Made by a program: the position numbers and the translations under genes | The notes under the pieces: model-generated | Database searches by the model: none | What the model was told of the DNA's origin: nothing | Seen by the model: only the letters and a program-made list of their open reading frames with translations | Part shown: positions 28,445 to 37,953 of the stretch, one piece after another | How the letters are laid out: each line of letters starts with the position of its first letter | Numbering within the stretch: the stretch's first letter is position 1 | Source: Marinobacterium marinum | GTDB lineage: Bacteria; Pseudomonadota; Gammaproteobacteria; Pseudomonadales; Balneatricaceae | DNA length: 64,000 nt | Direction of reading: 5' to 3' | Assembly (NCBI RefSeq): GCF_013868415.1 | Contig: NZ_JACEMT010000046.1 | Coordinates: 124,001 to 188,000, forward strand

Positions 28445-30148
28445 ATGGCCGCCTACCCTCAGCAAAAACAGCTCAGCTCCCAGTACCTCTGGCTCTCCCT
28501 GATCGTCGCACTGGTCCCGCTACTGTCATTTACCGCCCTGTACGACAGCTACTTCGCGCAATTGGTGACCCGTATTACGGATGGGCGCCTGGCCACCCAT
28601 CTGGCTGCTACCCGCAATGAATTCCGTACCCACTTGCGCGAACGCCAGTACGAACTGGAAGCCCTCACCGACCAGCTCGACAGGAGTGAACTGTTTACTC
28701 GAGAGGGCTACCATGCTCTATCACCCGAATTGAAAAGCCTGCTGCGGCTACAGCTGGATGATCAGGCCGTCTACGGCATCGCTTTCTTCGACGCTCAGGA
28801 CAATCTGTTATGGAGCTTTCCCTCCCAGACCCTGACTCAAACCCGATATCAACAGATGCAACAAAGCCCCACATCCACTTTCGAAAGCGTCGACCTCATC
28901 GGCCCCGGCGAACACTCATGGAACACCCCTCCCGCACTTCTGATGCGCAAGAAGGTCACATTCAGCGCCCTGACGCCGGCAGAAAACGCTCCATCCATCG
29001 CGCTGATTCTTCGTTTCAATACCCTTGCCGGTATTCCCCGAAACCTGCAACTGGGTGGCGTTTACAAAGCACTTTTGCGTACCCCGGACGGCCATAGTTA
29101 CGATACTGTCGGACAACCCGCCTCCCCCGGCGACACCTCCCACCATCATGAACTCATCCCCGGCTGGACACTGCAGCTGGTACAAAATACCGAACTCATA
29201 GAGCCGCCCAGCGCCGGGATGCGCTACTGGCTGATCACACTGGTTGCCGGCACCGCCGTGTCCCTGCTACTGCTGCACTGGTACCTGTCTCGCCGCCTCA
29301 AACACCAAGTTGACGTACTGATCCAGAGCGTCGAACAGGTTGCGAACGGTGATCTTGAAACCCCGGTCAAGCTGCTCAACAGCGCCGAAATGGGGCGCCT
29401 GACACAGGCCATCGAACGCATGCGCACACAGCTTAAACAGGTCATCAGTTCCACAGTCGACATGGAGCGCCAGGCGTCTCTGGGCCAACTGGCCGCCGGA
29501 CTTGCGCATGATATTCGCAACCCTCTGACCACCATTCGCACCACCATTCAGGCACTGGCCCGACGTGAACAGAACGCCATGCACAAAGACATGCTGAACA
29601 TGGTTGAAGAGGAGATCGAACGGGTCAACGAGGTGATTGCCAACCTGCTCAATTTTGCCCGGCCGCGCCCACCCCAGGCCGAACTCATTCGCGTCTGCGA
29701 GCTGTATGAAGGACTGATCGCACTGGTCAGTGCGTCGGCGCGGCATCAGCAGGTCACGCTGGCAATGAGCTGTGATCGTGCTCTGTTCATTCGTGCCGAT
29801 GCCGGTCACATGCGACAAATATTGATGAACCTTATTCTGAATGCCTTGCAAAGCCTGGAGGGCAGTGGGGGGCATATCCGACTGACAGCAGTCACAGAGC
29901 AGAAAACGGGGGCCATTCTACTCACGGTTACCGACGACGGTCCGGGCATTTCCGACACGCTGCTGCCCCGCATTACCGAACCCTTCTTCACAACCCGGGA
30001 AACCGGCACCGGTCTGGGGCTGGCAATCTGCCAGGTATTGGCGGCCAGTAATGACGCCAGGCTGCATATCCGCAGCCAGGTCAACCGGGGGACCAGCGTT
30101 GAACTGCGCTGCCCGGCCCCAGGACACAACGAGGCGAATAATGACTAA
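28445..30148 (+). CDS. Membrane sensor histidine kinase
   Basis: The 567-residue protein has a first membrane segment (about residues 15-33), a large periplasmic sensor region (about 34-258, possibly a Cache-type fold, by architecture only), a second membrane segment (about 261-279), a HAMP domain (about 280-335), the HisKA domain with phospho-acceptor H355 in GLAHDIRNPLTTIR, and an ATPase domain with N box NLILNAL (N466), G1 DDGPGI (497-502) and G2 GTGLGLAI (521-528). The HisKA type resembles NtrB/DctB-like kinases that pair with sigma-54 regulators. Its stop overlaps the regulator gene by 8 bp. The ligand is unknown; the neighbouring binding protein may deliver it. Confidence 0.9.
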   Translation: MAAYPQQKQLSSQYLWLSLIVALVPLLSFTALYDSYFAQLVTRITDGRLATHLAATRNEFRTHLRERQYELEALTDQLDRSELFTREGYHALSPELKSLLRLQLDDQAVYGIAFFDAQDNLLWSFPSQTLTQTRYQQMQQSPTSTFESVDLIGPGEHSWNTPPALLMRKKVTFSALTPAENAPSIALILRFNTLAGIPRNLQLGGVYKALLRTPDGHSYDTVGQPASPGDTSHHHELIPGWTLQLVQNTELIEPPSAGMRYWLITLVAGTAVSLLLLHWYLSRRLKHQVDVLIQSVEQVANGDLETPVKLLNSAEMGRLTQAIERMRTQLKQVISSTVDMERQASLGQLAAGLAHDIRNPLTTIRTTIQALARREQNAMHKDMLNMVEEEIERVNEVIANLLNFARPRPPQAELIRVCELYEGLIALVSASARHQQVTLAMSCDRALFIRADAGHMRQILMNLILNALQSLEGSGGHIRLTAVTEQKTGAILLTVTDDGPGISDTLLPRITEPFFTTRETGTGLGLAICQVLAASNDARLHIRSQVNRGTSVELRCPAPGHNEANND

Positions 30149-31478
30149 TCTGACCGCTCTGGTTATCGACGATGAACGCAATCTGATCCGCAGCATTCGC
30201 TTTGCCCTGATGGACCAGGGAATCGAGGTCCTCGGCGCCGGTACTGCGCGTGAAGGGCTTGAACTGGCGACCTCCGAGCAACCGGACGTAATCCTGCTGG
30301 ACCTGGGATTGCCAGACCTTTCAGGGCTTGAGCTTCTGCCTCGTTTGCGCCAGACACTACCGGAAATCCCCGTAATCATGATCTCGGCTCATGGCGACAC
30401 TCGCTCTGCCGTTCGAGCCGTAAAAGAAGGAGCACTCGACTACATCACCAAGCCATTCGAATGGGATGAACTGGTCGTGCTGATCCGGCGCAGCAGCGAG
30501 CACTCACGCATGGCGCGAGAACTCAGCTTTCACCGCCAACGTCACAGACATACACACCGCTTGGTCGGCAACAGTCCACAGATGGAACGGCTGCGCCAGA
30601 CACTGGAGCAGATCGGTCGCAGCTCCGGCAAGACGGTTCTGATCTCGGGCCCCTCAGGTACCGGCAAGGCGCTGGTCGCACGCAGCCTGCACGACGTACG
30701 CTTCGCGGATGCTCCCTTCATCGAAATCAACTGCGCCGCCCTGCCCGAACAATTGATTGAGGCCGAACTGTTCGGTGCCGAGCGTGGCGCCTACACCGGC
30801 GCAACGCAACACCGCAACGGCCTGATCGCCCTGGCCGATGGCGGCACCCTGTTTCTGGATGAGGTCGGCGAACTGCCTCTGCCCCTACAGGCCAAGCTAC
30901 TGAGCTTTCTCGAGAACCGCAGCTACCGCCCGATCGGCAGCAGCCGTGAAGTTCAGGCTGATGTGGTCGTGATGGCCGCCACCAATCGCGATCTCAAGTC
31001 CGAAGTGGAACACGGAACCTTTCGTTCCGATCTCTACTACCGCCTCAACATCCTGCCCATCAGCGCCCCGCCCCTGGCCGAACGCAGCGATGACATCCCG
31101 CTGCTGATGCACCACTTCAGCCAGCAGTTTGCCGCCCAGGAAGGTTGTGAGCCGCCAGCCTGGAGCCCGGAAGCACTACAACTGCTGCACCACTATGACT
31201 GGCCCGGCAATGTGCGGGAACTAAGAAACCTGGTTGAGCGCATCACCATCCTGCACCCCGGACAGAATATCCTGCCCCGACACCTGCCGGATGAACTCCA
31301 GACCGACACGGACGCAGCGCCTCAACCTGCCGCTTATACAGAGGCGGTCGAGGACAAGGAACGCCAACTGATCCTTGCCGCCCTGCAGGAAACAGGAGGA
31401 CACAAAGGACTGGCAGCCGAGCGCCTGGGTATTTCCCGCCATGCTCTCAAGCGTCGCATTCAACGCCTGGGGCTTTAA
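30141..31478 (+). CDS. Sigma-54-dependent response regulator (NtrC family)
   Basis: The 445-residue protein has a receiver domain (1-120) with acidic D10/D11, phospho-acceptor D54 and K104; an AAA+ domain (about 142-372) with Walker A GPSGTGK (170-176), Walker B LADGGTLFLDE (231-241) and the sigma-54 contact loop in the form GAYTGA (216-221) rather than GAFTGA; and a Fis-type helix-turn-helix (about 408-445, HKGLAAERLGISRHALKRRI). It remodels sigma-54 polymerase at -24/-12 promoters. ATG 30141 has GAGG upstream and overlaps the kinase stop. The aligned target is the -24/-12 promoter at 32871. Confidence 0.93.
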   Translation: MTNLTALVIDDERNLIRSIRFALMDQGIEVLGAGTAREGLELATSEQPDVILLDLGLPDLSGLELLPRLRQTLPEIPVIMISAHGDTRSAVRAVKEGALDYITKPFEWDELVVLIRRSSEHSRMARELSFHRQRHRHTHRLVGNSPQMERLRQTLEQIGRSSGKTVLISGPSGTGKALVARSLHDVRFADAPFIEINCAALPEQLIEAELFGAERGAYTGATQHRNGLIALADGGTLFLDEVGELPLPLQAKLLSFLENRSYRPIGSSREVQADVVVMAATNRDLKSEVEHGTFRSDLYYRLNILPISAPPLAERSDDIPLLMHHFSQQFAAQEGCEPPAWSPEALQLLHHYDWPGNVRELRNLVERITILHPGQNILPRHLPDELQTDTDAAPQPAAYTEAVEDKERQLILAALQETGGHKGLAAERLGISRHALKRRIQRLGL

Positions 31479-31499
31479 ACCCCGCTACAGAGAATCATA

Positions 31500-32786
31500 A
31501 TGTTCAGACTCAGCTTTCTCGCCTCTCTCATACGCCGACTGATCCTGCTGCCCCTCACTTTTGCAGTCCTGCCCGCACAGGCCGAGATCACGCTCGGCGC
31601 TGAGGATGCTGAAGCCCAGGTACGCGTCGGCTGCCTGTTCCCGCTCAGCGGGCGTGGCGGGCTCTATGGTCGCGACAGTGCCGTGGGTATTCAGCTGGCA
31701 CTGGAATGGCTGCAACAGCAGCCGATCCAATACCCGCACCTGCAAATATTCATTGCCGACAGCCGCTCAAAGGCTTCTCGGACAACTCGCCTGGCGCGCG
31801 AGTTTGTGCGCGACCGAGGTACCCGATTCATCTGTGGCGTGGTCAATTCCGCCGTTGCCTGGCAGGTCGCCCAGGTCGCGGAATCCGAACGCGCCTTTTT
31901 CATCGGCACCGACCATGCTTCCCCCCGCCTGACCGAAACGGATGTCTCTCCCTACTACTTCAGGGTCAACAACAATAGCCGCCAGTCCATGTATGCCGCC
32001 GCACGCTATATTCAGGATTCCTTTCAGCGGCCCGGAAAAAGACCTCTGCGCATCTCCTATCTGGGACCGGATTACGATTATGGCTACCAAATGTGGCAAG
32101 ACCTGCAGCAGGCTCTGCGGCAGGCTGACGTTCCCTTCGAAATCGTGACCGCTCTCTGGCCTCGCCTCTACGAGCCTGATTACACCCCCTATATAGAAGC
32201 CCTGAAGCAGCAACCGACCGACCTGATCATCAATTCGCTGTGGGGCGGCGACCTCGTAGCCTTCATCGAACAGGCCAACCAGGCCAATCTGTTCCGGCAC
32301 GCCGAATTTGCCAACTTCGACACCGGTGGCAACTACGAAGTTCTCGCAGCCTTGGCGGATGACATGCCGAGCGGGCTCATTCTTTCTTCCCGCCACCACA
32401 ATAACTGGCCCCAAACCGACTACAACCGCTGGTTCGTACAGCGCTTTCATGCACTGAGCGGTCGCTACCCCTCCTATGCGGCAGAAGGCGCTTACGCCGG
32501 CATTCTCGCCATCGCCGAAGCCATCCGTATTGCAGGCGTTGATGCCGACGATACCGAAATTCGCACGACCCTGGAGGGGCTCCGCCTGAAACTGCCGGAA
32601 GATCCGCCCGGATTCACCTCTTACATGGACCCGGTTACGCATCAATTACAGCAGGTCATCGCCATCGGCCGCAGCCTGCCCGCTTCCGACCACCCGCCTG
32701 CCAGCAAACTGCTGGGCGAATGGAAAATCTACCCGCCCCACCCCTCATCCCGAGCGAAAACCGCCCGCGCTGCCGATCATGAATGA
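31500..32786 (+). CDS. Orphan periplasmic substrate-binding protein (type 1 PBP, AmiC/UrtA-like)
   Basis: The 428-residue protein has a signal peptide (about 1-28, cleavage after LPAQA) and a two-lobed type 1 periplasmic binding fold starting VGCLFPLSGRGGLYGRDSAVGIQLA, with DSRSKASRTTRLAREFV, GTDHASPRLTE and LSSRHHNNWPQTDY. This family covers branched-chain amino-acid, amide and urea binding proteins. There are no ABC permease or ATPase genes beside it; it follows the regulator by 21 bp. The inference is that it serves as the periplasmic ligand receptor for the kinase rather than as a transport subunit. Ligand unknown. Confidence 0.85.
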   Translation: MFRLSFLASLIRRLILLPLTFAVLPAQAEITLGAEDAEAQVRVGCLFPLSGRGGLYGRDSAVGIQLALEWLQQQPIQYPHLQIFIADSRSKASRTTRLAREFVRDRGTRFICGVVNSAVAWQVAQVAESERAFFIGTDHASPRLTETDVSPYYFRVNNNSRQSMYAAARYIQDSFQRPGKRPLRISYLGPDYDYGYQMWQDLQQALRQADVPFEIVTALWPRLYEPDYTPYIEALKQQPTDLIINSLWGGDLVAFIEQANQANLFRHAEFANFDTGGNYEVLAALADDMPSGLILSSRHHNNWPQTDYNRWFVQRFHALSGRYPSYAAEGAYAGILAIAEAIRIAGVDADDTEIRTTLEGLRLKLPEDPPGFTSYMDPVTHQLQQVIAIGRSLPASDHPPASKLLGEWKIYPPHPSSRAKTARAADHE

Positions 32787-32803
32787 GCGAATCCCGCTCA
32801 TTC
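32781..32803 (+). promoter_or_regulatory. Perfect inverted repeat: terminator or upstream activator site
   Basis: GAATGAGCG (32781-32789) and CGCTCATTC (32795-32803) are perfect 9-bp arms around AATCC, overlapping the stop codon of the binding-protein gene. A T-rich tail (TTCATTTTCATTGCGTTT) allows a weak terminator. It also lies 68 bp before the -24 element, within the usual distance of an enhancer for an NtrC-type regulator. Confidence 0.45.
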
Positions 32804-32870
32804 ATTTTCATTGCGTTTCCAGATCAAACAAAAACCCTTAATAAACAATTAGTTACAAGATAGTAAAAAC

Positions 32871-32886
32871 TGGCATCCGTTTTGCT
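32871..32886 (+). promoter_or_regulatory. Sigma-54 (-24/-12) promoter
   Basis: TGGCATCCGTTTTGCT matches the RpoN consensus TGGCAC-N5-TTGCW with the invariant GG and GC at the right spacing and one change (T for C). It sits between a sigma-54 regulator operon and a catabolic operon on the same strand. Transcription would start near 32897, giving a leader of about 360 nt before the aldehyde dehydrogenase. Confidence 0.85.
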
Positions 32887-32945
32887 TTAGCACCTTTGCA
32901 GTTCTGCCCGCGTGACGCAGAAGAACAACAAAGAGGCAAACCGGT

Positions 32946-33173
32946 ATGCGAATGCTGTCAAACAGTCATTGTTGCAGCCCCTTTCAAGGTGCTGCCCTCA
33001 AGACCTTCTCGTGGTTACACCCTGGCGCCACGAGCCCCTCATGGCTTGGCAACACCGCACTCAGGCCGGCTTCCCGTTCGCTGCACCGGACGGAGTCCAA
33101 GTCCACTCTTCTGCCCGACGTCGAGCGCTTGACGCTCGGCGTTCAAACGCGCCTCTGCATGTACAACGTTTAG
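32946..33173 (+). CDS. Possible 75-codon leader ORF
   Basis: An ATG at 32946 preceded by AAAGAGG nine bases upstream opens a 75-codon frame inside the long sigma-54 leader, ending 80 bp before the dehydrogenase start. The product (MRMLSNSHCCSPFQ start, Ser/Leu/Arg-rich) resembles no family I recognise. Stable hairpins lie under it: CTCGTGG/CCACGAG (about 33008-33034) and CGAGCG/CGCTCG (about 33120-33136). It may be a leader peptide, or non-coding structured leader with a chance ORF; there is no homology support. Confidence 0.25.
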   Translation: MRMLSNSHCCSPFQGAALKTFSWLHPGATSPSWLGNTALRPASRSLHRTESKSTLLPDVERLTLGVQTRLCMYNV

Positions 33174-33255
33174 TTAATCGACGCCTTTTCAGTGCTGTTC
33201 GCGCCCTTAACTCGGCGGGAACAGCCATGGCCACACAACCTGAATGGAGATGGTT

Positions 33256-34701
33256 ATGACCACACTCAAGGATGCGTCCTTGCTGAAAGACCTTTGCCTG
33301 ATCAATGGCACCTGGGTCGCTGCAGCATCGCAAGCCACCATCAACGTGACCAATCCGGCCACCGGTGAACCCCTGGCGACCGTGCCTCACCTGGCCCCGG
33401 AAGAAATCCCGGCCGTTATCGAAGCCTCCCGAGTCGCGCAGAAAACCTGGGCAGCCCGCCCAGCCAAGGAACGCGCAGCCATCCTGCGCCGCTGGTTCGA
33501 GCTGATGCTGGAAAACGTCGATGATCTTGCCCTGATCATGACCCGCGAACAGGGCAAGCCGCTGGCCGAAGCCAAGGGCGAAATCGCCTACGCGGCCTCT
33601 TTCATCGAATGGTTTGCCGAAGAGGCCAAACGCGTGTACGGCGACACCATCCCTGCACCCCGTGCAGACCAGCGTATTACCGTGCTGCGCCAGCCCATTG
33701 GCGTTACTGCCGCCATCACGCCCTGGAACTTCCCGGCTGCCATGATCACCCGCAAGGTTGCACCAGCCCTGGCCGCCGGCTGCTCCATGATCGTCCGCCC
33801 CGCGGACCTGACCCCGCTGACGGCTCTGGCACTGGGCGAACTGGCACAGCGGGCCGGCGTACCGGCCGGTGTATTCCAGATCGTCACCGGCTCCGCCAGC
33901 AAGATCGGCAAAGTGCTGACCGACAGCGAAGTCGTCAGCAAGCTGTCCTTCACCGGCTCTACCGAAGTCGGCCGACTGTTGATGGCCCAGTGCGCAGACA
34001 CTATCAAGAAAGTTTCCCTGGAGCTGGGTGGCAACGCCCCCTTCATCGTGTTCGATGATGCCGACCTGGATCAGGCCATTGAAGGTGCCATGGCCTCCAA
34101 GTACCGCAACGCCGGCCAGACCTGCGTATGCGCCAACCGCATCCTGGTACAACGCGGCGTCTACGATGCCTTCGCTGAAAAGCTGACCGAACGGGTACGT
34201 GCGCTGAAAGTCGGTGACGGCACCAAGGCCGGTACCGATATCGGTCCGATGATCGAGGAAAAGGCGATCACCAAGGTGGAAGAACACATTCAGGATGCCG
34301 TTGCCAAGGGCGCCACCCTGCTACACGGTGGCGAGCGCCTGGGCGGCCTCTACTTCCAGCCCGCCATTCTCACCGGTGTCACCACCGAGATGAAAGTGGC
34401 CCGGGAAGAAACCTTCGGCCCCATGGCCCCCCTGTTCGTGTTCGACACCGAAGAGGAAGCCATTGCCATGGCCAATGACACCATTTTCGGTTTGGCCGCC
34501 TATTTCTACACCCGCGATCACGCACGCACCATCCGCGTTTCCGAAGCTCTGGAATACGGCATGGTCGGCCACAACACCGGCCTGATTTCCAACGAAGTCG
34601 CACCCTTTGGTGGCGTCAAACAGTCCGGGCTCGGCCGAGAAGGTTCGAAGTACGGCATCGATGAATACCTGGAACTCAAGTACGTCTGCAGCGCGCTGTA
34701 A
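33256..34701 (+). CDS. NAD(P)-dependent aldehyde dehydrogenase, GabD (succinate-semialdehyde dehydrogenase)-like
   Basis: Aldehyde dehydrogenases oxidise aldehydes to acids; the closest recognisable subfamily is GabD. The 481-residue protein has N158 (PWNFP), the general base E256 (LELGGN), the nucleophile C290 (AGQTC) and the C-terminal [17 protein letters not shown] and LELKYVC typical of GabD. Odd point: the cofactor-binding lysine of the usual KPA/S motif is arginine ([10 protein letters not shown]181). ATG 33256 has GGAG seven bases upstream; two earlier ATGs (33244, 33250) overlap that site. First enzyme gene after the sigma-54 promoter; succinate semialdehyde as substrate is only a guess. 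Confidence 0.88.
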
Positions 34702-34761
34702 GACTCAACCGGCGAGCAGGCCTTGTGCCGCTCGCCTCTGGAATGGAGGAGGAATCCAACC

Positions 34762-35928
34762 ATGACTGAAGAACTCAAGCCCTTTACCTTCGACACCCCC
34801 GGGTCGATGCATCTGGAATGGGGCGGCGCCGCGCGCATGGGCGAACTGCTCGGCGAATGGTTCGAACAGCGCAACCTGCTGATCGTCACCGACAAGTTCC
34901 TGCACGAAAACGGCCTGCTGGATGCTGCCAAGGCATCACTGGCCGCCTGTGGCTTTAGCGTTGTCGTCTTCGATGATGTCGTCGCCGACCCACCCGAGTC
35001 AGTACTGCTGGCCTGTGTCGAACAGGGTAAGACTGCAGGTGCCGATATTGTGCTGGGGCTGGGTGGTGGCTCGTCCATGGACATCGCCAAGCTGGTTGCC
35101 GTCATGCTGAAATCCGACCAGTCTCTGGCCGACATGTATGGCATCGGCAACATCAAGGGTGATCGTGCCCCGCTGGTACAGGTACCGACCACGGCCGGTA
35201 CCGGCTCCGAAGTGACCAACATCACCATCCTGACCACCGGTGAAACCACCAAGATGGGGGTTGTTGCCCAACAACTGTACGCCGACCGCGTCCTGCTGGA
35301 TGCAGAGCTGACTATTGGTCTGCCGGCCGCCGCCACCGCCGCGACCGGTATCGACGCCATGGTTCATGCCATTGAAGCCTACACCTCGGCTCACCGCAAG
35401 AATCCCCTGTCCGACGTGCTGGCCAGGGAAGCCCTGCGTCTGCTGTGCGGCAATCTGGTGACGGCCTGTCAGGAAGGCTCTAACCGAGCCGCTCGTGAAG
35501 CCATGCTGCTGGGCTCCAATCTAGCCGGCCAGGCGTTCTCTAACAGCCCCGTTGCAGCCGTACACGCCCTCGCCTACCCGCTGGGTGGTCACTACCACCT
35601 GCCGCACGGCCTGACCAATGCGCTGATGCTGGGTCCGGTTCTGCGTTTCAACATGGCCGCTGCGGCACCGCTGTATGCGGAGCTGGCCGACGTTGTCTTG
35701 GGCCCGAGCGATGCGGATGTCCAGACCCGCTCGGCACGCTTTGTCGAACACATGCAGGCACTGATGAACCAGTCCGGTGCCCCTCAGCGCCTGCGCGACG
35801 TCAACATCAGCGAAGACAGCCTGCCGACGCTGGCCAGAGACGCCATGTTGCAAAGCCGATTGCTGATGAACAACCCGGTTGAAGTGACCGAGGCCGACGC
35901 TCTGGCGCTGTACCAGGAAGCTTACTGA
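34762..35928 (+). CDS. Iron-containing (group III) alcohol dehydrogenase
   Basis: The 388-residue protein belongs to the Fe-ADH family: NAD loop GGGSSMD (101-107), TTAGTGSE, and the four metal ligands D198 and H202 (GIDAMVHAIEAY), H268 (AVHALAYPLG) and H282 (LPHGLTNALML). Such enzymes interconvert alcohols and aldehydes, including 4-hydroxybutyrate, 1,3-propanediol and long-chain alcohols. Directly after a GabD-like gene it suggests a two-step route from alcohol to aldehyde to acid. ATG 34762 follows GGAGGAGG, a very strong ribosome-binding site. A hairpin (34711-34736) lies in the 60-bp gap before it. Confidence 0.92.
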   Translation: MTEELKPFTFDTPGSMHLEWGGAARMGELLGEWFEQRNLLIVTDKFLHENGLLDAAKASLAACGFSVVVFDDVVADPPESVLLACVEQGKTAGADIVLGLGGGSSMDIAKLVAVMLKSDQSLADMYGIGNIKGDRAPLVQVPTTAGTGSEVTNITILTTGETTKMGVVAQQLYADRVLLDAELTIGLPAAATAATGIDAMVHAIEAYTSAHRKNPLSDVLAREALRLLCGNLVTACQEGSNRAAREAMLLGSNLAGQAFSNSPVAAVHALAYPLGGHYHLPHGLTNALMLGPVLRFNMAAAAPLYAELADVVLGPSDADVQTRSARFVEHMQALMNQSGAPQRLRDVNISEDSLPTLARDAMLQSRLLMNNPVEVTEADALALYQEAY

Positions 35929-35940
35929 TCCCCAACCCAT

Positions 35941-35965
35941 GCCCGCCCTGCCCGACAGGACGGGC
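35941..35965 (+). repeat. Intercistronic GC-rich hairpin
   Basis: GCCCGCCCTG (35941-35950) pairs with CAGGACGGGC (35956-35965), nine of ten positions, around CCCGA. It sits between the alcohol dehydrogenase and permease genes and has no T tail, so it more likely tunes mRNA stability or relative expression than terminates. Confidence 0.45.
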
Positions 35966-35997
35966 TCAACATTCATACAACAACAAAGAGTACAACT

Positions 35998-37365
35998 ATG
36001 CTAAAACAGCGAGTTGACGGACAGGAAACACCTTACTGGCCCGCCGGGCCATTCAAGATCCGCCTGCCCTTTATTCACTACAAGATCGAGTGGCCGGACT
36101 ACTTTCAGGGCCTGCTGATGTGTGCCGTAGACCTGGCGGCTATTCCCCTGATGACCGAACTGCTGGGCATGCCGTTTGAAGTTGCGCTGGCAGTTGTGAT
36201 GCTGAACGGCCTGTTCTACCTGCTGCACCACCTGCTGGGCGACCCCGTCATCCCGGGCTGGATCACCCCCGCCATTCCACTGCTGATGGCCTACTGCGCC
36301 AGCTTCCCCGAAGGCCCGGAGCGAATACATGCGCTTATATCCTTCCAGCTGCTATTAGGGTTATTTGCCATTGGCATTGGCGCTTCGGGATTGGCGCACC
36401 GCGTAGTGGCGGCAATCCCGCAGGCCATAAAATCAGGCGTCATCATTGGTGCCGGCATCGCAGCCGTCATGACCGTATTCAAGGTCGACGGACGCTTTGA
36501 TACTTACCCGATCACCATCTCCGTGGCCGTCGGTATTGCCTTCTACGTTATTTTTTCACGTCATTTCGCACGCCTGAAAGCCAGCAACACCCTGTTCAAT
36601 ATGATCGGCAAACTGGGTGTATTCCCCATCGTGGTGTTGGCCATTGTCATCGCGCCTACCGTGGGGGAAACCTCCTGGCCTGAAATCGAGTGGGGCTTTT
36701 CGTCACCCGACTTCGCCACTCTCTGGTCCGAGTACACCGTATTCGGCCTGGGCATGCCGCCACTGGAAATGTTCATCAGCTGTATTCCAACCGTACTGGC
36801 CGCCTACATCGTACTATTCGGCGATGTGCTGCAGAGTCGTGCCATTCTGAAGGAAGCCGACCACGAACGCCCGGATGAAGTGGTTGAGTACAACCCGGAC
36901 CGCGCCCACATGATCTTCGGTGCTCGCAACTCCGTCATGTCGATCATCGGCCCCGATGTCGCCATGTGTGGTCCGCTCTGGGCTGCCATGCACGTTGTGA
37001 TCGTAGAACGCTTCAGTCAGGGCAAGAAGGCCATGTACTCCATTTTCGGTGGTGCAGGCTCCTTCCGCTGGGGTACCAACACCGGCCTGCTGTTCATGCC
37101 GATCGTGACTCTGGTACAGCCGATTCTGGGCGTAGCCCTGGCTCTGACCCTGCTGATTCAGGGCTATGTATCGGTACGTATCGGCGTTATGGAAGCGCGC
37201 TCCCAGCGTGACCTGGGCATCGCGGGTATTGTTGCAGCAGTGCTGGCAACCCGTGGCGCTACCTGGGCCTTTGCCGTCGGCGTCGTACTCTGCCTGCTGG
37301 TCTACGGACGCGACTTCTTCAAGGGTGAAAAGGACGCGACTTTCGTGAAGGATCAGGAAAGCTGA
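35998..37365 (+). CDS. Multi-pass permease, distant NCS2/SLC23-like
   Basis: The 455-residue protein is highly hydrophobic with roughly 11-13 predicted membrane segments and short loops. The GDPVIPGWITPAIPLL segment and the overall pattern recall the nucleobase-ascorbate/SLC23-SLC26 fold, but the sequence is far from the standard uracil/xanthine permeases, so the transported compound is unknown. An AAAGAG precedes the ATG. It ends the sigma-54-driven operon, before a hairpin at 37372-37403, so it probably imports the substrate handled by the two dehydrogenases. Confidence 0.75.
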   Translation: MLKQRVDGQETPYWPAGPFKIRLPFIHYKIEWPDYFQGLLMCAVDLAAIPLMTELLGMPFEVALAVVMLNGLFYLLHHLLGDPVIPGWITPAIPLLMAYCASFPEGPERIHALISFQLLLGLFAIGIGASGLAHRVVAAIPQAIKSGVIIGAGIAAVMTVFKVDGRFDTYPITISVAVGIAFYVIFSRHFARLKASNTLFNMIGKLGVFPIVVLAIVIAPTVGETSWPEIEWGFSSPDFATLWSEYTVFGLGMPPLEMFISCIPTVLAAYIVLFGDVLQSRAILKEADHERPDEVVEYNPDRAHMIFGARNSVMSIIGPDVAMCGPLWAAMHVVIVERFSQGKKAMYSIFGGAGSFRWGTNTGLLFMPIVTLVQPILGVALALTLLIQGYVSVRIGVMEARSQRDLGIAGIVAAVLATRGATWAFAVGVVLCLLVYGRDFFKGEKDATFVKDQES

Positions 37366-37596: not shown

Positions 37597-37953
37597 AAGT
37601 GAGAGTCTGCCGATAAGCCGGGTTTTGTCGTGGACAATCATTCATCTAGGACCAGCGTCGCCACTGGTCTCAAGCGACCTACCCGGACCCGGCGCGGGCC
37701 ACGCCTTAATGGGTCCCTATTTGGTCTTGCTCCGGGTGGGGTTTACCATCGCCGTGGAATGTTGCCACCCACGCGGTGCGCTCTTACCGCACCATTTCAA
37801 CCTTACCGGCATCCGAAGATGCTTAGGCGGTATACTTTCTGTTGCACTTTCCGTCGGCTCGCGCCGCCCAGACGTTATCTGGCACCTTGCCCAATGGAGC
37901 CCGGACTTTCCTCCCCTGCGCGAACGCAGCGACGATTGCCTGGCAGACTCTCG
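37597..37953 (-). ncRNA. rnpB: RNase P RNA (type A)
   Basis: The catalytic RNA of RNase P, which trims the 5' leader of pre-tRNAs. On the minus strand the universal blocks appear in order: GAGGAAAGTCCGGGCTC near the 5' end, GGTGCGGTAAGAGCGCACCG, GGTAAACCCCACCCGGAGCA, AAATAGGGACCC, GATGAATGATTGTCC and ACAAAACCCGGCTTATCGG. Helix P1 is formed by GAGAGTCTGCC (37942-37952) and GGCAGACTCTC (37601-37611). About 357 nt; both ends are estimates from P1 and the E. coli RNA. It lies just downstream of rsmI as in Pseudomonas. Confidence 0.96.

What the first reader, a model, noticed from the sequence alone, without database searches (positions are those of the whole stretch)
32871..32886. Near-perfect sigma-54 promoter linking the regulator to the dehydrogenase operon
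TGGCATCCGTTTTGCT has the invariant GG and GC at exact RpoN spacing and lies between an NtrC-type regulator operon and a same-strand catabolic operon. It makes the regulatory wiring readable from sequence alone.
Basis: seen in the sequence. Interest (0 to 1): 0.55.

Follow-up and report, generated by a model that had tools for sequence, protein, structure and literature searches.

The report
Conserved sigma-54 promoter, hydroxybutyrate-type operon
A short DNA switch in front of a small catabolic operon is very probably a real, evolutionarily conserved sigma-54 promoter with paired activator sites, tying a neighbouring sensor and regulator to genes that probably burn 4-hydroxybutyrate; its parts are of well-known kinds.

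Summary
The 16-mer TGGCATCCGTTTTGCT is at 32871-32886 (+), once in the genome. As a lone motif it is not above chance (14 sites at 2 mismatches or fewer, 15.4 expected). Conservation makes the case. Among 26 distinct loci with the same kinase-regulator-binding-protein module, 22 carry TGGYAY-N5-TTGCW just behind the binding-protein gene, including 14 of 14 followed by the same dehydrogenase-permease operon. Upstream lie two tandem dyads, GAGCG-N4-CCGCTC, 30-34 bp apart in 20 of those 22, the likely binding sites of the NtrC-type regulator, and an IHF-like element. In the genome the tandem pair is found once, here. rpoN is present. The dehydrogenases are 69-71% identical to the pair beside blcR and attM in Agrobacterium, whose operon passes 4-hydroxybutyrate to succinate (PMC3907764, passages). 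In Thioclava the same trio lies beside an IclR-type regulator. Best reading: a dCache-like kinase, perhaps with the binding protein, senses the substrate, and the regulator activates sigma-54 polymerase. New member of a known kind; substrate, transcription start and activation remain untested.

The parts
28445..30148 (+). Sensor histidine kinase: periplasmic dCache-like domain (membrane helices by eye), HAMP, HisKA, HATPase
   Evidence: Pfam HisKA/HATPase_c/HAMP; AlphaFold model of residues 1-340, pLDDT 77.9, matches dCache sensor domains
30141..31478 (+). NtrC-family response regulator / enhancer-binding protein (receiver, AAA+ with GAYTGA, Fis-type HTH)
   Evidence: Pfam Response_reg, Sigma54_activat, HTH_8; D54 and G-A-Y-T-G invariant in the 17 sequences aligned
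31500..32786 (+). Periplasmic solute-binding protein (type I fold), last gene of the regulator group; possible co-sensor
   Evidence: Pfam Peripla_BP_6; model matches type I binding proteins; beside the regulator in all 26 distinct modules
32752..32766 (.). Upstream activator site 1 (GAGCGAAAACCGCCC), overlapping the 3' end of the binding-protein gene
   Evidence: conserved dyad in relatives; pair found once in the genome
32785..32799 (.). Upstream activator site 2 (GAGCGAATCCCGCTC), core of the inverted repeat 32779-32805 (11-bp arms)
   Evidence: starts 86 bp upstream of the -24 element
32843..32855 (+). IHF-like element (AAACAATTAGTTA), one mismatch to the recalled consensus WATCAANNNNTTR
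   Evidence: same position within one base in 13 of 17 non-redundant loci; at most 3 in 200 mononucleotide shuffles
32871..32886 (+). Sigma-54 -24/-12 promoter TGGCATCCGTTTTGCT
32897..33255 (+). Predicted untranslated leader (start about 12 bases after the -12 GC, inferred); not conserved in relatives
   Evidence: alignment; RNA fold z = -1.6, 8 of 100 shuffles as stable; no Rfam match there at gathering score
33256..34701 (+). Succinate-semialdehyde dehydrogenase (BlcA/GabD-like); start set at the third in-frame ATG, after GGAG
   Evidence: TIGR01780 723 bits over cut-off 646; under the GabD equivalog cut-off, 783 of 828; 71% identical to the SSADH beside blcR in A. fabrum
34762..35928 (+). 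Iron-containing alcohol dehydrogenase, BlcB-like; probable 4-hydroxybutyrate dehydrogenase
   Evidence: Pfam Fe-ADH; 69% identical to the ADH between SSADH and attM in A. fabrum
35998..37365 (+). Permease, no Pfam or NCBIfam hit; relative of PDB 7tak 'PurT'; probable importer of the substrate
   Evidence: 85% identical copy in the Thioclava gene row

Best explanation
The site is the -24/-12 element of a sigma-54 promoter that drives a three-gene operon: succinate-semialdehyde dehydrogenase, iron alcohol dehydrogenase, permease. The neighbouring NtrC-family regulator, phosphorylated by its dCache-type kinase (perhaps with the co-encoded periplasmic binding protein presenting the ligand), binds two tandem dyads that start about 86 and 119 bp upstream of the -24 element, oligomerises, and contacts sigma-54 polymerase across a loop that IHF may bend at the element next to the promoter; ATP hydrolysis by its AAA+ domain opens the promoter. 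The operon imports an alcohol, most likely 4-hydroxybutyrate, oxidises it to succinate semialdehyde and then to succinate. Shown here: the site, its conservation with the dyads, their association with this module, presence of rpoN, gene content, similarity to the blc pair. Inferred: binding, IHF, phosphorelay, co-sensing, ligand, transport substrate, transcription start. The confidence given is for promoter and wiring; the substrate alone stands at about 0.65.
For: Strict site TGGYAY-N5-TTGCW behind the binding-protein gene in 22 of 26 distinct modules; only 25 such sites in all 944,290 strand-bases of 27 module sequences (26 plus one cut short), 22 of them in this gap. 14 of 14 loci with the same operon have it. 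Tandem dyads at 3 mismatches or fewer, 30-34 bp apart, in 20 of 22; the nearer dyad starts 83-90 bp before the -24 T in 19 of 22, 100-101 bp in three. Tandem pair (33-bp spacing) at 2 mismatches or fewer: 7 of 116 family genomes, all 7 among the 13 with a close regulator, always at the module; once in the own genome. In five loci of the ABC-transporter branch the same dyad pair plus a weaker -24/-12 precedes the kinase gene, so the dyad follows the regulator and not the enzymes. Regulator has the sigma-54 loop and HTH. rpoN, 510 bits. Five active-site positions of E. coli GabD (R164, R282, S445, C288, E254; PMC2823781 section 8) are identical in the aligned window protein.
Against: No transcript, footprint or mutant data. 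The lone motif is at chance level. The loci are related by descent, so counts are not independent events. Four of 26 modules (L077, L104-L106, all in one other family; regulators 52-56%) lack the strict site and a close dyad pair. The single dyad at one mismatch is not enriched in the genome (86 hits against 87 for the control). At 3 mismatches the tandem pattern also hits 9 places away from modules, and the reversed control gives 18 hits; 3 of 13 close-regulator genomes lack a pair at exactly 33 bp. The 34-bp-spaced pair over 390 order genomes hit no module. The window's first dyad is degraded in its right half (CGCCC). The alcohol dehydrogenase meets no NCBIfam cut-off (best ErcA 273 of 550, 4-hydroxybutyrate dehydrogenase 215 of 500). 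The permease's only solved relative found is named PurT, which suggests purines.
Confidence: 0.88

Rival explanations
1. The inverted repeat 32779-32805 is simply the intrinsic terminator of the regulator genes, and the downstream operon is read from an ordinary promoter; the -24/-12 match is chance.
For: The scan lists it as terminator-like, stem 11, tail TTTCATTGCG; the plain consensus is at chance frequency in the window.
Against: No sigma-70-type match in 32500-33400. Relatives keep the dyad core, its tandem copy and distance, but mostly neither the long stem nor a T tract (by eye); 22 of 26 modules keep the -24/-12. The repeat may still end some transcripts.
Confidence: 0.05
2. The promoter is sigma-54 dependent but is fired mainly by another enhancer-binding protein of the genome, with the local regulator serving other targets.
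For: The own genome holds five further matches to the regulator at E below 1e-80.
Against: At 2 mismatches or fewer the dyad pair is confined to genomes and loci with the close regulator, and it recurs before the kinase gene in five loci of a related branch.
Confidence: 0.06
3. The wiring is right but the substrate is not 4-hydroxybutyrate; a different hydroxy acid, a diol or a purine-derived alcohol is imported and oxidised. (This shares the wiring with the best explanation.)
For: Permease related to PurT; one ABC-branch locus (L075) carries an added thioesterase-like gene, by eye; one distant module stands before an ABC transporter with hydrolases, by eye; alcohol dehydrogenase under all family cut-offs.
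Against: Both dehydrogenases match the Agrobacterium pair beside blcR and attM and the SSA-binding residues are kept.
Confidence: 0.3

Closest known systems
blcABC operon of Agrobacterium (gamma-butyrolactone / 4-hydroxybutyrate catabolism)
   Same: Succinate-semialdehyde dehydrogenase and iron alcohol dehydrogenase in the same order, 71% and 69% identical; pathway per PMC3907764 passages.
   Different: Controlled by the repressor BlcR (IclR family) in Agrobacterium; here by a sigma-54 two-component system. A permease stands where the lactonase is.
Thioclava plasmid gene row (SSADH, iron ADH, 455-aa 'hypothetical protein')
   Same: Same three genes in the same order, 84%, 78% and 85% identical.
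   Different: Beside an IclR-family regulator 42% identical to BlcR; no kinase, NtrC-type regulator or binding protein annotated in the 13-kb stretch.
Sigma-54 promoters with tandem enhancer sites and IHF (NtrC/AtoC-type systems; recalled)
   Same: -24/-12, paired dyads, intervening IHF-like element, adjacent two-component genes.
   Different: Dyad GAGCG-N4-CCGCTC is not one I recall for a characterised regulator; regulator is under the NtrC (414 of 559 bits) and AtoC (402 of 714) cut-offs.
LuxP-LuxQ (binding protein plus kinase)
   Same: Kinase sensor domain matches LuxQ among many dCache-like folds (ranks 41 and 48); a periplasmic binding protein is co-encoded.
   Different: Downstream is an NtrC-type regulator and catabolic genes; the binding protein groups with amino-acid/urea/amide type I proteins. 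Interaction untested.

Membership tests
Sigma-54 (RpoN) promoter | GG-N10-GC with TGGCAC..TTGC-like flanks | tested here: met
Sigma-54 (RpoN) promoter | element conserved before orthologous operons | tested here: met
   14 of 14 same-operon loci
Sigma-54 (RpoN) promoter | genome encodes RpoN | tested here: met
   TIGR02395, 509.7 bits over cut-off 277
Sigma-54 (RpoN) promoter | transcription starts about 12 bases after the GC and needs rpoN | not testable with these tools
   no transcript or mutant data
NtrC-type enhancer-binding regulator with upstream activator sites | receiver + AAA+ with GAFTGA-type loop + Fis HTH | tested here: met
   (loop reads GAYTGA)
NtrC-type enhancer-binding regulator with upstream activator sites | conserved dyads upstream at a steady distance, following the regulator | tested here: met
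   absent in 4 of 26 more distant modules
NtrC-type enhancer-binding regulator with upstream activator sites | regulator binds these dyads | not testable with these tools
   -
NtrC / AtoC equivalog | score over the curated cut-off | tested here: not met
   414.3 of 558.6; 401.8 of 714
Succinate-semialdehyde dehydrogenase | subfamily score and SSA-binding residues | tested here: met
   TIGR01780 723 of 646 bits; R164, R282, S445, C288, E254 of E. coli GabD identical (PMC2823781 section 8). The narrower GabD equivalog is not met (783 of 828)
4-hydroxybutyrate dehydrogenase | curated family cut-off | tested here: not met
   215 of 500 bits for the Cupriavidus-type model; 69% identity to the enzyme in the BlcB place speaks for function only
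blcABC operon | lactonase BlcC/AttM and repressor BlcR adjacent | tested here: not met
   none of the seven products scanned between 28445 and 37365 is of either kind
IHF site | WATCAANNNNTTR | tested here: inconclusive
   one mismatch in the window; position kept in 13 of 17; consensus recalled

The most novel reading that the evidence does not exclude
A portable three-part sensor (dCache kinase, sigma-54 regulator, periplasmic binding-protein co-receptor) with its own dyad and promoter has taken over a BlcAB-type 4-hydroxybutyrate operon from IclR-type repression in marine gammaproteobacteria. In sister loci the same module and sites are joined to an ABC importer, so permease and ABC transporter would be interchangeable importers of one ligand, and the Pfam-less PurT-like permease would be a hydroxy-acid importer and not a purine carrier.
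Probability: 0.35. Interest if true: 0.55.

Novelty: new member of a known kind. Interest (0 to 1): 0.42.

Why it matters
It turns a single-sequence guess into a testable regulatory circuit: regulator, two activator sites, promoter, and a probable pathway. It also gives a concrete substrate hypothesis for a permease without a Pfam match and shows the same catabolic gene pair beside two unrelated kinds of regulator (IclR-type and sigma-54 two-component) in different bacteria. The pairing of binding protein and kinase is a ready case for asking how periplasmic binding proteins feed sigma-54 systems.

Tried and rejected
Terminator-only reading of the repeat 32779-32805: rejected because relatives keep the dyad and its tandem copy, mostly not the terminator features. 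A structured or coding leader between promoter and first gene: fold z = -1.6, 8 of 100 shuffles as stable, no Rfam match there, no conservation, and the 115-aa GTG frame at 32912-33259 has no Pfam or NCBIfam hit. A wider regulon: single dyad not enriched; the other exact dyad (contig 22) lies inside a long open frame, with only a weak -24/-12 match (9 of 12) about 190 bp away; tandem pair only here. Autoregulation in the window: no site or dyad found in the 500 bases before the kinase gene, unlike five related loci.

Literature: eight searches. Among the titles listed I saw none on sigma-54 control of 4-hydroxybutyrate catabolism and none on PurT of entry 7tak; three lists were capped (15 of 26, 12 of 498, 10 of 76) and the library holds open-licence papers only, so this is weak evidence of absence. 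Papers seen: PMC3907764 and PMC4641369 as passages, PMC2823781 as passages and section 8; all others as search listings with abstract starts only. Recalled, from no call: the IHF consensus, the meaning of GAFTGA and D54, transcription start about 12 bases after the GC, loop activation by enhancer-binding proteins beyond the PMC4641369 passage.

For the IHF position test 17 of 22 promoters were used (near-duplicates L039, L040, L094, L097, L099 left out). L041-L043 and L045-L048 carry the permease relative but no such module in the stretch held. ABC-transporter genes were read in L075 only; in the other six loci of that branch they are inferred from the second binding-protein match and both dehydrogenases at like spacing.

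Full report
Observation. TGGCATCCGTTTTGCT lies at 32871-32886, + strand, once in the 3.28-Mb genome. GG and GC have RpoN spacing. On its own the motif is weak evidence: 14 sites at two mismatches or fewer in the window against 15.4 expected; the tighter TGGCAY-N5-TTGCW is found 16 times in the genome against 7 for the reversed pattern. The consensus of -24 and -12 elements in Desulfovibrio, called similar to other groups, is tGGcacg and tTGCt (PMC4641369, passages).

Surroundings. On the + strand, in order: histidine kinase 28445-30148, NtrC-family regulator 30141-31478, periplasmic binding protein 31500-32786, a gap, succinate-semialdehyde dehydrogenase 33256-34701 (the third in-frame ATG, which follows GGAG and is the start seen in relatives), iron alcohol dehydrogenase 34762-35928, and a permease without Pfam or NCBIfam hit 35998-37365. 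The regulator has receiver, AAA+ with GAYTGA, and Fis-type HTH. One full-length rpoN is present.

Comparative test. A search of genome contigs with the permease gave 18 loci; 11 of them (Oceanimonas, nine Marinomonas, Marinobacterium) have the identical six-gene order. Searching the regulator in 57, 116 and 390 genomes, sets that overlap, and fetching the stretches gave, after dropping three duplicates and one truncated contig, 26 distinct modules including the window. In 22 of 26 the strict site TGGYAY-N5-TTGCW lies behind the binding-protein gene; the 27 module sequences together (26 plus the truncated one) hold only 25 such sites in 944,290 strand-bases. It is present in 14 of 14 modules followed by dehydrogenase-dehydrogenase-permease; in 7 of 7 followed by a second binding protein and both dehydrogenases (ABC-transporter genes read in L075, inferred in the other six); and in L101, which stands before an ABC transporter and hydrolases by eye. 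The four without it (L077, L104-L106) belong to one other family, with regulators 52-56% identical to the window's.

Activator sites. Alignment shows two dyads, GAGCG-N4-CCGCTC (or GATCG/CGATC halves), upstream of the promoter. At three mismatches or fewer both are present, 30-34 bp apart, in 20 of 22 promoters, one only in L096 and L097; the nearer dyad starts 83-90 bp before the -24 T in 19 of 22 and 100-101 bp in three. In the window they are 32752-32766 and 32785-32799. The tandem pair with 33-bp spacing was searched in 116 family genomes: at two mismatches or fewer it is found in 7, all among the 13 genomes with a close regulator and always at the module; in the own genome it is found once, here. 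At exactly three mismatches it appears in 3 more module genomes and at 9 places away from modules; the reversed control gives 18 hits; 3 of the 13 close-regulator genomes have no such pair at this exact spacing. With 34-bp spacing over 390 order genomes no module was hit. In five loci of the ABC-transporter branch the same pair, with a weaker -24/-12, also precedes the kinase gene: the dyad goes with the regulator. An IHF-like element sits at the same distance from the -24, within one base, in 13 of 17 non-redundant promoters (at most 3 in 200 mononucleotide shuffles); the loci share ancestry, so this is suggestive.

Pathway. The SSADH passes its subfamily cut-off, not that of the GabD equivalog, and keeps five active-site residues named for E. 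coli GabD (PMC2823781 section 8). A tblastn of the alcohol dehydrogenase over plasmids found 221 records. Of these I opened four. In Agrobacterium fabrum the match (69% identity) lies between an SSADH (71%) and attM, with blcR next to the SSADH; that operon turns gamma-butyrolactone through 4-hydroxybutyrate and succinic semialdehyde into succinate (PMC3907764, passages). In Thioclava the three window genes recur at 84%, 78% and 85% beside an IclR-family regulator 42% identical to BlcR. In Paracoccus and Sulfitobacter the SSADH-ADH pair recurs in other settings. Hence 4-hydroxybutyrate is the best substrate guess. Against it: the alcohol dehydrogenase is below every listed family cut-off and the permease's solved relative is called PurT.

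Sensing. A model of the kinase's first 340 residues (pLDDT 77.9) matches dCache sensor domains, among them KinD and, further down, LuxQ. The binding protein is modelled well (pLDDT 86.9) and matches type I binding proteins such as AmiC and UrtA. That it presents ligand to the kinase is inference from co-occurrence (26 of 26 modules, a set gathered by regulator or permease).

Mechanism and confidence. Ligand, perhaps through the binding protein, makes the kinase phosphorylate the regulator, which binds the dyads and activates sigma-54 polymerase through a loop that IHF may assist. Promoter identity and wiring: 0.88. Substrate: about 0.65. Experiments are listed under next steps.

Novelty. Every component kind is known. 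The specific circuit, its dyad and the link of this permease to a BlcAB-type pathway were not seen among the titles listed in eight literature searches of an open-licence library, three of them with capped lists. I file it as a new member of a known kind.

Noticed in passing
32741-32805: In Oceanimonas the binding-protein gene ends with a TGA that is part of the first dyad (TGAGCG); the window has CGA there, so the frame runs on over dyad 1 and stops inside the repeat around dyad 2, adding a C-terminal tail, and dyad 1's right half is degraded.
   Followed up: partly
28445-37365: Possibly horizontally acquired: 0 of 7 other genomes of the genus have a close regulator, while Oceanimonas (named) has SSADH and permease 98% identical. 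DNA identity to it is 88.9% over 33214-37359 but 73.6% over 28466-32940, with the break just behind the promoter.
   Followed up: partly
L049 5342-6577: The binding-protein gene of Marinobacterium mangrovicola has an in-frame stop about 68 codons into the matched stretch; the close relative L094 is open there. Decay or sequencing error.
   Followed up: no
35998-37365: Permease with no Pfam or NCBIfam match though a solved relative exists (7tak); relatives occur near an SSADH relative also in L045 and L046, and near a regulator relative in L047 and L048.
   Followed up: partly
L101 3365-10805: A regulator orthologue at 51% identity with the same dyads and promoter stands before a branched-chain-type ABC transporter and two hydrolase genes (amidase and N-carbamoyl-hydrolase-like, by eye), so the module family is not tied to hydroxy acids.
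   Followed up: no
37598-37951: Bacterial RNase P RNA, class A, on the - strand just behind the operon.
   Followed up: no
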